Positions 12,803-17,198 of a stretch of DNA of 64,000 bases are shown here, one piece after another. Origin of the DNA: Candidatus Hepatoplasma crinochetorum (GTDB taxonomy: Bacteria > Bacillota_I > Bacilli_A > Mycoplasmatales > Hepatoplasmataceae); the NCBI GenBank assembly GCA_001179805.1, contig CWGI01000001.1, positions 372,001 through 436,000 on the forward strand, given 5' to 3'. Positions within the stretch are counted from its first letter, which is position 1. Each line of letters opens with the position of its first letter. The notes under the pieces are model-generated. The model worked only from the letters and a program-made list of their open reading frames with translations. It did no database searches and had not been told where the DNA came from. A program made the position numbers and the translations under genes.

Positions 12803-13927
12803 ATGATTAGTATTAAAGGTTATGATGCAAATTTAAAAAAAATTGAAGTATTTATAAAAGATAATAAAATTTTTAAAATAAATTATTTAAAAAGCGAAGA
12901 AAAAATAAAAAAAAGATACATTATTCCAGGATTTATTGAATTACATTCACATGGAGGATATGGATTTGATTTTGTCTCTGCTGATCAAAAAAAAATGTTA
13001 TTTTTTTTAAACAAACTTGCAGTAAAAGAAGGAACAACATCAATTTGTGGAACCACAATTACGACTGATTTTGAAAAAATGCGCAAAACATTTAGAAATT
13101 TGAGTCCATATATTGATAAAAAAATCAATGGTGCAAATTTTATCGGTTGACATATGGAGGGACCTTTTATAAGTAAAATAAAAAAAGGAGCTCATCCAGA
13201 AGATAAAATTATTGATCCAATAATTTTAAATGTTAATAAATATTTAAAAGACTACTTTAGTAAAATAAAAATAATCACATTAGCTCCTGAATTAACATCA
13301 AAACAGACTCTTTTATATTTGAAAAATAAAAATATTATTATTTCAGCAGGACACATGAATGCAAATAAAAAAGAATTTATGGAAAAAGAAAAATATGGAA
13401 TTAAATCAATTACCCATTTTAATAATGCAATGCAAAAAAATGATGATAAAAATGATAATAGTTTATCAGAATACATTTTAAAAAATGATGATTTATATAT
13501 TGAATTTATAAATGATCGAATCCACAATTCAAAAGAATTAGCTAATAAAATTTATAATAAAAAAGCTGAAAACAAAATTATGCTTGTAACCGATTCTTTA
13601 CAAATAAAGGGTTTAAAAAATGGTATTTATTCTGGTCCTAATGGTAATATTATTAAAAGAAATAATGCTGCTTGATTTGAAAATAAGACTTTAAATGGTT
13701 CTTGTTATTCAATGCATAAGGGATTTATAGATTGAATAAAATATCAAAAAGCATCAATTCAAGAGGCAATTGATGTTACTTCAAAAAACCAAGCTAGATT
13801 ACTAAATTTAAAAAAAGGAGTAATAAAAGAAGGGTATGATGCTGATATTTTAATATTAAATTCTAAATTTAATATTAAAGAAGTTTATGTAATGGGAGAT
13901 AAAGTGTTGGAGAATAAATGAAAATAA
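12803..13927 (+). CDS. nagA: N-acetylglucosamine-6-phosphate deacetylase
   Basis: NagA removes the acetyl group from GlcNAc-6-P, giving glucosamine-6-P for NagB. The 374-residue frame (TGA as Trp) matches the family length of about 380. The amidohydrolase motifs appear in order: ELHSHGGYGFDF (metal-binding HxH), GWHMEGPFISKIKKGAH, ISAGHMNA, ITHFNNAMQ, FINDRIHNS and the catalytic Asp in LVTDS. The end is QARLLNLKKGVIKEGYDADILIL, typical of amidohydrolases. The ATG follows AAGGATT. The gene overlaps nagB by ten bases because its last codons are TGA(Trp)-AAA-TAA, so the two are translationally coupled. Confidence 0.93.
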
Positions 13928-14598
13928 TAAGTGGATCAAAAACAAAATTAGAAGAATCAATTGCAAATAAATTTATTCAAATTATAAATAATAAAAGTAA
14001 TGCAAAATTTTTACTTGCAACCGGTAATTCACAAGTTGAAATATATAAAAATTTAGTTGATTATTATCAACAAAATATCGTTTCGTTTGCAAATGTTATT
14101 ACATTTAATTTAGATGAATATTTACAAGCAGAAAAATATTATACAGATTCCTTTTCTAATTTTATGAAAAATAAATTATTTGATTATATTGATATCAAAA
14201 AAGAAAACATATTTTTTCCACAAGAAGTAAAGGAATATAATAAAAAATTAGATCAAATTGATTATTTTGATTTAACAATTCTTGGAGTCGGCGAAAATGG
14301 TCATATTGCCTTTAATGAACCAGGAAGTAAAATTACTGATCGTACAAAAATAGTTAATTTAACAGCTTCAACAATTCAAGCAAATTTTAAAAATCGTACT
14401 GATTATCCTAAACAAGCAATTACAATTGGGATAAGAGATATTCTTAAAAAATCAAAACTTATTTATGTTGTTGCATGAGGAGAAAAAAAAAGAAAATCTG
14501 TAGAAAAATTATTAGAAAAAGAAATAACTTCAGATTGACCGATTACATATCTTTTGAAAAACAAAAATGTAATTCTTTTTACAGATCTTGAAATATAA
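13918..14598 (+). CDS. nagB: Glucosamine-6-phosphate deaminase
   Basis: NagB converts glucosamine-6-P to fructose-6-P and ammonia, the last step before glycolysis. The 226-residue protein is slightly shorter than the usual 235-265. Family motifs are LATGNSQVEIYKNLV (sugar phosphate loop), FNLDEY with the catalytic Asp, and GVGENGHIAFNEPGS with the catalytic His of the relay. The ATG lies inside the end of nagA (overlap 13918-13927). Two TGAs near the C-terminus read as Trp (VVAWGEKKR and SDWPITYL). It is followed by a hairpin terminator. Confidence 0.93.
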
Positions 14599-14625
14599 AT
14601 TTTAAATATTTATTAAATAAAAGAG

Positions 14626-14650
14626 AGATTAATTATAATTAATCTTTTTT
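14626..14650 (+). terminator. Rho-independent terminator after nagB
   Basis: AGATTAATTATAATTAATCT (14626-14645) is a perfect palindrome followed by a run of T. It is preceded by an A-rich stretch, so the stem may be longer. It closes the PTS-nagA-nagB operon. Confidence 0.6.
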
Positions 14651-14684
14651 ATTATAAAATTAATAAAAAAGGAGGATTATTAAA

Positions 14685-17198
14685 ATGTTTAAAACTTTAA
14701 ATTTTAATAAATTTATTGAATATTTAGATTCTAATAAACCAAGATACGAAGTAGAAAAAGAGGCTTCTAATTATTTAATTGAGGGAATTAATAGAACAGA
14801 AGAATATGCATTACAATCAGAAGAAGAAATTTTTAAAAATGAAGGAAATATTGCCATTGCATTAAGAAATTTTTTAGAAATTTTCTTAATAGATTTTATA
14901 CCTAAAAGAATCGAATTAAATCCACAATTCAATGATTTTGATTATGATAAATATTATAAATTGGGTAGTAGTAATGAAAGAATTATTGAATTAGACCGAG
15001 AATGAAATATTATTAATAAAGATATAAAAGATGCATTACATTTTATTAAAAATATTGCGAATAATGCTTCTCATAATAACAAAAATAAATTTGTTGAAAT
15101 TAATAAATCAAAAATTGTAATGTGTTTAGATTATATTTACAATATTTTGTATTGATTTTATGATTTAAATAGTAAAAAAGATTTTGTTTCAAACAGATAC
15201 TATAAGCCAAATGAAAAAGAACCAACAGCTAACATTAAAATAAAACAAACTTTTTCTCACGAACCATATAAAACAATTGTAATAAATGATGATAAAATAT
15301 TAAATGTTTTATTTGATGAAGGTAAAAAATTTTTTATCCCTATATATCAAAGAAATTTTTCTTGAACAAAAAGTGAAATTGATGAATTATTTTTAGATCT
15401 TGAAAAAAGAATAATTGATCAAAAAAATCATTTTTTTGGTCTTGTTACATTAAGCAATACAAATAATTTTAAAAAAATAGGTAGCAAAAAAATAAATTTA
15501 TTAAAAATAGTTGATGGCCAACAAAGATTTACAACAATTGCATTGTTTGTAAAAGCACTATATATTCACTATTTAAGAGCATTAAAAAATAACATTATTA
15601 AAATCGATAGTAAATTAGCAAAATTTATTAATAATAAAAATTTGCCAATTGATCGCTTTGATGATGAAATTTCAATTAAAATTTTTGAGTTAATTTGAAA
15701 AAATGAAAAATTTTCTAAATTTGAAGAGAATGAATTTAAAAACAATAATTTATTTGAAATTTATAAATACTTGTTTAAAAAAATAGCCGATTTTAAAAAA
15801 GTAAAAAATGAATATGAAACAGTAATTGGAAATTTAGATAAATTATATTGAGCTTTAAAAAAATTAGTAATTGGAATAAATTGAACAAAAGACTATGATG
15901 AATTTGAACTTTTTGAATCAATAAATTCAAAGGGAGTTCCTCTTACCAATTTTAATATTTTTAAAAATTATATTATTTCACTTGCTTCTAATAAGGATTA
16001 TGAATATGAAAATGAAGTAGGAGAAATTGGTTTAATTTTTAATGATCAATCAAGAGAAATTTCAGAATTATTTGATAAATATATTATCAATAAAATAAAT
16101 AATTGATTAAAGAAAAATAGTACTAAAGATTTTGAAAAAATAACAAATAGTTTTTTTAATTCATACATAAATTTTTATAGCAATAATAAGCCAAATGAAA
16201 AAAGATTATTTTCTCAATTTAAAAGTATTTTTGTTGAGCAATTAAAGCAAAAATTTGGCAAAATTGATAATTTTTCATTTAAAGAATTTGAAAAAATATT
16301 AGTTGATTTATCAGTTTTTTTAAATATCTATTTATTTTTGAATGTAGGAACTTATTCAATTTGAAAACAAAGTCCTGCATTATCTGAATTTTATAAATAT
16401 TTTCATACATTAGCAGGAACAAGTTTTATAAATATTTTAGTTCCTTATTTAATTTCAGAAGAAAATGTAGTATTTACAGAAAATGGTTCAATTGTCAGAA
16501 TTAAAAACCCAAAAGAATTTCAAGAAATTTTAAAATTTCTTGAAATTTGGAGAATAAGATTAGGGGTTGTAAATTCAAAATTAAATTACGCAGTTAAAAT
16601 TTTTCCATTTTCTAAAAAATTTAACCAAATATTAGATAAAAACAAGGGAAATGGAATTTTAAATAATAGTTTTCTTGATTTATTAAAATCAACGATTGCA
16701 GATGAAGACAATTTTTTAAAATTTCCTGATGATAAAAAATTTTATAATACTCTTGCAAATGAACCTATTTATAATCAACAAATTTTGAAAGATGTAATTT
16801 TAAAAATTGTTCAAAGTGAGGATAAATTTATTAATGAAACTAATTATAGTAAATATGAAATGTATCCTATAATTGAAAAAGATCTTAAAAAAAGAAGCGA
16901 AAAATGAAATAATTTTTTACAAGGTTTTGATAATTTAAAAGAAGAATCTTATTTTAAATTAGGAAATTATTTTTCTCATAAAAATAATAAAGAAATAAAA
17001 AAAAATGAAAAAGAAGATTTTAATAATTTGCTTTTAAATATTCAAGAAGATAATATTACAATAAATAAAAATGGATTTTTTGAAATATTATCAATATCAA
17101 ATTTAAATTCTTATTATGGAAAAGATATTAATGAATATTTTCTTGCAAGATCAAAATATTTAGCGCAAAAAGCTTTAGAAATATTTAATATAAATTAA
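14685..17198 (+). CDS. DUF262 (GmrSD-type) protein with an N-terminal DUF4145-like domain; candidate defence gene
   Basis: This protein of 837 residues reads several TGAs as Trp. Residues about 1-175 resemble DUF4145, which is found in restriction proteins: the block ALHFIKNIANNASHN matches the usual LHxIRxxGNxxAH pattern. The DUF262/ParB-like domain follows, with FFIPIYQRNFSWTKSEIDE (about 218-236), IVDGQQRFTTIALF (about 274-287) and LFESINSKGVPLTNFNIFKNYI (about 410). In GmrSD enzymes this domain binds nucleotide and drives a DUF1524 nuclease. The C-terminus (about 700-837) resembles DUF1524 (KLGNYFSHKNNKEIKK, then INEYFLARSKYLAQKALEIF), but the expected HNH motif EHILP is YEMYP, so the catalytic His is missing. 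GGAGG stands before the ATG. It is a single gene behind the nag terminator, between housekeeping blocks, as expected for acquired DNA. Antiphage function is inferred. Confidence 0.75.

What the first reader, a model, noticed from the sequence alone, without database searches (positions are those of the whole stretch)
14685..17198. DUF4145-DUF262 fusion with a nuclease domain that lost its histidine
DUF262 motifs (YQRNFSW, DGQQR) are perfect. The N-terminus carries a DUF4145-like domain and the C-terminus a DUF1524-like domain in which EHILP has become YEMYP. A single-gene GmrSD relative without the HNH catalytic residue would need another way to act, possibly through the N-terminal domain. It sits alone between a terminator and ksgA, as acquired defence genes do.
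Basis: partly seen in the sequence, partly recalled or inferred. Interest (0 to 1): 0.7.

Follow-up and report, generated by a model that had tools for sequence, protein, structure and literature searches.

The report
Conserved nuclease-dead GmrSD relative with HEPN-like domain
A bacterial symbiont of woodlice keeps a protein built like a DNA-cutting anti-phage enzyme, but its cutting site was lost once in an ancestor and the protein has been kept under selection ever since, so it probably works by sensing or binding rather than by cutting DNA.

Summary
Window 14685-17198 is one 837-aa gene, readable only with TGA=Trp. The genome matches Ca. Hepatoplasma crinochetorum Ps. DUF262 is intact (IPIYQRNFSW, DGQQR). 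The N-terminus is a DUF4145/HEPN-like domain: weak by Pfam, supported by relatives and by a predicted fold. The C-terminus is homologous to DUF1524, but Pfam GmrSD_C no longer recognises it. The catalytic His is gone, although the register is probably IIE-K732, not YEMYP. The metal-binding Asn also appears lost, while the LGN Asn is kept.

All six Hepatoplasmataceae members share this loss and form one clade (SH-aLRT 100). Other mollicutes carry the same three-domain layout with an intact EHILP...GN...N...K site. The gene keeps its place after nagB in three species and is under purifying selection in every domain. It is absent or elsewhere in other relatives, so it is neither decay nor universal housekeeping. 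The HEPN-like motif also lacks the canonical Arg, so the N-domain cannot be assumed to be an active RNase.

Best reading: an NTP-driven DUF262 sensor that acts without cutting DNA, through the HEPN-like domain or by binding DNA or a partner GmrSD. This is a new variant of a known kind.

The parts
14621..14650 (+). AT-rich hairpin with U-tract between nagB and the gene, likely intrinsic terminator
   Evidence: RNA fold -9.6 kcal/mol, z -3.67; same hairpin with compensating changes before the gene in Ca. H. scabrum. The G+C-rich terminator scan does not list it.
14670..14675 (+). AGGAGG ribosome-binding site
   Evidence: read directly
14685..17198 (+). coding sequence, 837 aa, genetic code 4: DUF4145/HEPN-like - DUF262 - helical linker - degenerate DUF1524
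14685..15194 (+). N-terminal DUF4145/HEPN-like all-helical domain (residues 1-170)
   Evidence: Pfam DUF4145 E 0.003, found in 8 of 12 family members scanned; profile match to the N-domain of His-intact relatives E 2e-9; AF2 pLDDT 85, top Foldseek hits are HEPN toxins, best probability 0.80 but E not significant
15048..15074 (+). HEPN-like motif K122-NIA-N126-NAS-H130; canonical Arg replaced by A125
   Evidence: R61, N126 and H130 invariant in 10 aligned relatives; alignment
15303..15974 (+). DUF262 (GmrSD_N) domain, residues 207-430
   Evidence: Pfam E 6e-29
15345..15353 (+). YQR motif (221-223)
   Evidence: invariant in A2
15513..15527 (+). DGQQR NTPase motif (277-281)
   Evidence: invariant in A3, 30 proteins
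15981..16784 (+). alpha-helical linker (residues 433-700)
   Evidence: AF2 secondary structure
16785..17195 (+). degenerate DUF1524 domain (residues 701-837)
   Evidence: hhalign to active DUF1524 E 5e-5; fastest-evolving part, dN/dS about 0.40-0.48
16854..16868 (+).
16875..16880 (+). E731-K732: invariant Glu of the EH motif and the residue that replaces the catalytic His
16962..16967 (+). G760-N761, the retained Asn of the HNH site
   Evidence: nearly invariant in A3
16977..16979 (+). H765, only His of the C-terminal region, present in 5 of 6 family members and not in His-intact relatives

Best explanation
The gene encodes a pseudonuclease of the GmrSD type. Shown by sequence: an ancestor with the layout DUF4145(HEPN-like)-DUF262-linker-DUF1524, still intact in other mollicutes, lost its HNH active site once on the stem of a Hepatoplasmataceae clade, and the protein has since been retained under purifying selection. 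Inferred: DUF262 still binds and hydrolyses NTP and senses a DNA state (modified or foreign DNA). The C-terminal domain survives as a DNA-binding or structural module that cannot cut. The NTP-driven conformational change is passed to the HEPN-like N-domain or to a partner protein, so the output is translation or RNA interference, a DNA roadblock, or regulation of an active GmrSD, not DNA cleavage. The most likely role is a non-cutting anti-phage or anti-MGE sensor-effector.
For: DUF262 motifs are invariant and DUF262 is the slowest of the main domains (dN/dS about 0.16); the whole gene is about 0.25-0.30, like neighbouring nagB, ksgA, tilS and pth. The C-domain is homologous to active DUF1524, but His is K or P in all six members, the N...N..K tail is lost, and no Pfam GmrSD_C hit remains, whereas five of the other six relatives in the same alignment keep the site and five members have the hit. 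The six form one clade (SH-aLRT 100) among 53 GmrSD rows whose other 47 keep the His. Same place after nagB in three species, with a conserved hairpin before it in two. The predicted structure matches SspE and DndI (Foldseek E 4e-10 and 2e-9; BrxU 2e-3), and the N-domain's best matches are HEPN proteins. In SspE, DUF262 NTP hydrolysis controls the C-terminal nuclease domain, and in DndI the NTPase is needed for defence (PMC9646914, PMC11662687).
Against: No function was measured. The canonical HEPN Rx4-6H motif is incomplete in Hepatoplasma, so the N-domain may be catalytically dead too. In SspE and DndI a mutant of the nuclease site abolishes phage defence, which argues that a dead version would need a different output. 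The genomes carrying it also carry an intact GmrSD, so this copy could be auxiliary. No defence-island context.
Confidence: 0.5

Rival explanations
1. Regulatory partner: the dead protein hetero-oligomerises with the intact GmrSD encoded in the same genome (625 aa, C1:130 kb) and tunes its specificity or holds it off, as an inactive paralogue subunit.
For: BrxU and DndI are dimers (PMC11662687). Every genome carrying the dead gene also carries an intact GmrSD_C protein, of one orthologous-looking type.
Against: Genomes without the dead gene also carry GmrSD_C proteins, so co-occurrence is not specific. The two genes are not linked. Sequence identity between the two types is low.
Confidence: 0.22
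2. HEPN RNase effector: DUF262 sensing activates the N-domain, which cleaves RNA and stops growth (abortive infection), making the DNase dispensable.
For: N126 and H130 are conserved in 11 of 12 relatives. HEPN fold prediction. Spiroplasma-like relatives have RNSNFH / RNDEGH motifs. The DUF262 plus HEPN pairing is known in PD-T4-2 and a HEPN-DUF262-HNH fusion (VNG7073).
Against: The motif Arg is A/S/T in Hepatoplasmataceae. The paralogue in the same genome and its stand-alone N-domain copy also lack the His.
Confidence: 0.15
3. Domesticated non-defence protein, for example a DNA- or RNA-binding regulator now part of the core gene set of these symbionts.
For: Fixed position after nagB and housekeeping-like selection in three species.
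Against: Homologue elsewhere in H. vulgare, duplicated in the window genome, none found in five of ten family genomes.
Confidence: 0.1
4. Still a nuclease with a rebuilt site, using H765 or K732 in place of the lost His.
For: H765 lies directly after the retained LGN in 5 of 6 members and is not found there in His-intact relatives.
Against: The metal-binding Asn and other site residues are also lost; the paralogue has Tyr at 765; the C-domain evolves fastest.
Confidence: 0.03

Closest known systems
GmrSD type IV restriction endonucleases (DUF262+DUF1524; GmrSD, Eco94GmrSD, BrxU)
   Same: DUF262 with YQR and DGQQR, alpha-helical linker, C-terminal DUF1524-homologous domain, single chain
   Different: extra N-terminal DUF4145/HEPN-like domain; catalytic His and metal-site Asn lost; no Pfam GmrSD_C match
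Mollicute DUF4145-DUF262-DUF1524 proteins (e.g. L047, L048, L050, L151-L158)
   Same: same three-domain layout and length (about 750-840 aa); nearest His-intact relatives by architecture
   Different: relatives keep EHILP...GN...N..K; 20-25% identity to the five measured (L047, L048, L050, L059, L071)
SspE and DndI (phosphorothioate-sensing DUF262-HNH effectors)
   Same: best structural matches (Foldseek E 4e-10 and 2e-9); DUF262 NTPase-HNH layout
   Different: they nick DNA and need their HNH residues; no N-terminal HEPN-like domain; their dnd/ssp partner genes were not looked for here
PD-T4-2 (DUF262 plus HEPN defence system)
   Same: pairs DUF262 with a HEPN domain and has no active DUF1524 nuclease
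   Different: listed with a different HEPN family (PF18735); here a fusion to DUF4145-like HEPN plus a relic DUF1524

Membership tests
GmrSD type IV restriction enzymes | N-terminal DUF262 domain with YQR and DGQQR motifs | tested here: met
   Pfam E 6e-29; motifs invariant
GmrSD type IV restriction enzymes | C-terminal domain homologous to DUF1524 | tested here: met
   profile-profile E 5e-5, probability 67%, shared E731/G760/N761/R822; Pfam GmrSD_C itself not matched
GmrSD type IV restriction enzymes | intact HNH site (EHxxP His, GN Asn, third His/Asn) | tested here: not met
   His is K or P in 6 of 6, third residue lost, GN kept
GmrSD type IV restriction enzymes | NTP-stimulated cleavage of modified DNA | not testable with these tools
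   needs purified protein
HEPN superfamily (DUF4145) | HEPN sequence and fold | tested here: inconclusive
   Pfam DUF4145 below cut-off (18.1 vs 23.1 bits), matched in 8 of 12 relatives at E up to 0.1; Foldseek top hits HEPN but E not significant
HEPN superfamily (DUF4145) | Rx4-6H RNase motif | tested here: not met
   A125-N-N-A-S-H130; only Lys at -8; Arg present in some relatives
PD-T4-2 | DUF262 together with a HEPN domain and no DUF1524 | tested here: not met
   single fusion gene with a DUF1524 relic; definition from PMC10952713
SspE / DndI | association with phosphorothioation genes (ssp or dnd) | not tested
   genome not searched for dnd or ssp genes

The most novel reading that the evidence does not exclude
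A conserved class of single-gene GmrSD-like defence proteins that act with no DNase: an NTP-driven DUF262 sensor coupled to a HEPN-like domain, with the HNH domain turned into a DNA-reading module. It would show that type IV restriction architecture can be converted into a non-cutting immune sensor.
Probability: 0.3. Interest if true: 0.7.

Novelty: new variant of a known kind. Interest (0 to 1): 0.45.

Why it matters
If true, it is a natural separation of function: a GmrSD whose sensing half is preserved and whose cutting half was lost once and kept lost under selection. It would make testable whether DUF262 proteins do more than license a nuclease, and it gives a clean comparison set (dead clade versus intact relatives of the same layout). 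It also adds a conserved candidate defence gene to isopod symbionts in which only restriction-modification and CRISPR-Cas9 had been listed (PMC10928387).

Tried and rejected
Decayed pseudogene: rejected; frames are open in all six members, and in the orthologue pairs compared dN/dS is well below 1 in every domain. Lost His replaced by another His upstream: none in residues 598-764. C-terminus unrelated to DUF1524: rejected. Universal housekeeping gene: rejected. Mobile-element origin: 7 phage and 43 plasmid records share essentially the DUF262 stretch, none covers 80% of the protein; viral contigs gave 4 DUF262 matches. Single-sequence genome-contig scan found nothing; the alignment scan was needed. 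NCBIfam has no model for it. PADLOC hits (Orf5, HEC-06, SspE) reflect mainly DUF262.

Full report
What was checked. The window is a mollicute genome read with code 4. The gene at 14685-17198 encodes 837 aa, starts after AGGAGG, follows nagB (13918-14598) and an AT-rich hairpin with a U-tract, and is followed by ksgA. Gene names of the neighbours rest on my reading of their sequences, not on a library search.

Domains. Pfam finds DUF262 (GmrSD_N) at 207-430, a sub-threshold DUF4145 match at 105-133, and nothing for DUF1524. The same genome has four DUF262 genes: one with an intact EHIMP site (625 aa), one with FEHVMSK (566 aa), the window gene, and a second member of its family (844 aa, 42% identical) followed by a stand-alone 171-aa copy of the N-domain.

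The family and its relatives. Homologues of the full protein occur in Ca. H. scabrum (73%), Ca. H. crinochetorum Av (72%), Ca. H. vulgare (43%) and a 'SnakePit' MAG recorded as an uncultured Mycoplasmataceae bacterium (35%); species names come from record titles and genome lengths. A wider search found proteins of the same layout in MAGs named Mycoplasma, Ureaplasma and Mycoplasmatales, and in an unnamed mollicute family that looks like Spiroplasma (genome search entries carry no names). These keep the active site: SIEHILPQ ... LGNYF ... NSSASNK.F..KK in L047. Five of 12 aligned members have a Pfam GmrSD_C hit, which fits the five full-length intact relatives, and eight have DUF4145.

The lost site. 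In the six Hepatoplasmataceae proteins the invariant E731 takes the place of the Glu of EH, and the His is Lys (four) or Pro (two). The Glu-to-Trp spacing is 10-11 in both groups; the profile-profile alignment and the alignment with a solved 818-aa DUF262 protein (20yv) agree. The LGN Asn stays; the following Asn and Lys, invariant in active domains, are gone. In SspE the His is the general base, the Asn structural and the third residue binds metal (PMC9646914), so this site should not cut. In the AlphaFold model (pLDDT 81.5) the first strand is 724-728, so the register stays open at the structural level.

One loss, then retention. A tree of DUF262 plus linker, leaving out the C-domain, puts the six dead members in one clade with support 100, one change of state among 53 rows (quick method, some long branches). 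Between the window gene and its two closest orthologues dN/dS is about 0.25-0.30 overall, 0.16 in DUF262, 0.22-0.36 in the N-domain and 0.40-0.48 in the C-domain (ratios of the dN and dS values). Amino-acid identity (72-73%) is like that of pth and tilS beside it. So the C-domain is relaxed but not free, and the gene is not a relic.

Place in the genome. In three species the gene follows nagB; in two of these ksgA follows it, and in Ca. H. crinochetorum Av two repeat-containing genes lie in between. In Ca. H. vulgare the homologue lies elsewhere and ksgA follows a tatD-like gene instead; a similar arrangement is seen in several other family genomes, as far as their contigs show. Five of ten family genomes yielded no member. 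This is neither a mobile defence island nor a universal core gene.

N-domain. R61, N126 and H130 are invariant in ten aligned relatives. The model of the domain alone (pLDDT 85) has HEPN proteins as its leading Foldseek hits, but with E above 0.2, so HEPN is likely, not proven. The Arg that defines the HEPN RNase motif (PMC3710099) is A/S/T in the Hepatoplasmataceae members that keep the His, Gly in most of the Mycoplasma-type relatives and Arg in some of the Spiroplasma-like ones. RNase activity cannot be assumed.

Mechanism. Shown: intact DUF262 motifs, dead HNH site, selection. Inferred from SspE and DndI: NTP hydrolysis by DUF262 drives the rest of the protein. With no nuclease there, the signal must go to the N-domain, to DNA binding itself, or to a partner such as the intact GmrSD that accompanies it in all five genomes. 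I favour a non-cutting sensor-effector (0.5 overall), with the partner model next (0.22).

Context. Losses of this His are not confined to this clade: H-to-Y changes were seen in two proteins of G007, a Bacteroidetes MAG and a Cenarchaeum record, with GN and part or all of the tail kept, and in the H. scabrum orthologue of the 566-aa protein. In the same survey the His was present in 106 aligned proteins. The fixed, multi-residue loss in the Hepatoplasma clade differs from these scattered changes.

Novelty. GmrSD with extra domains is known (PMC4619093), and a HEPN-DUF262-HNH fusion was noted in 2013 (PMC3710099). I found no report of a conserved nuclease-dead GmrSD in the searches made, which cover only the open-licence library. 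It is a new variant of a known kind.

Noticed in passing
L006:10590-11105 (own genome, about 517.6 kb): Stand-alone 171-aa copy of the N-domain directly after the second dead GmrSD gene; 33% identical to that gene's N-domain (E 4e-18), HEPN His lost.
   Followed up: partly
L175, L184 (G007), L080, L064, L193: GmrSD-like proteins in which the HNH His is Tyr (EYIMP, EYVMP, EYILP, EYIIP, FEYVY); in the first four GN and much of the rest of the site are kept.
   Followed up: partly
L007:10954-16347 (own genome, about 595-600 kb): Repeated short-chain dehydrogenase-like genes interleaved with repeated small proteins, next to the 566-aa GmrSD.
   Followed up: no
L017:10047-15721 (Ca. H. crinochetorum Av): Two approx. 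930-aa RCC1/BNR-repeat-like proteins with signal-like N-termini lie between the dead GmrSD and ksgA.
   Followed up: no
L046:3847-5664: In the SnakePit MAG another DUF262-type gene (605 aa) with IDHVIP near its C-terminus lies directly downstream of the dead member.
   Followed up: no
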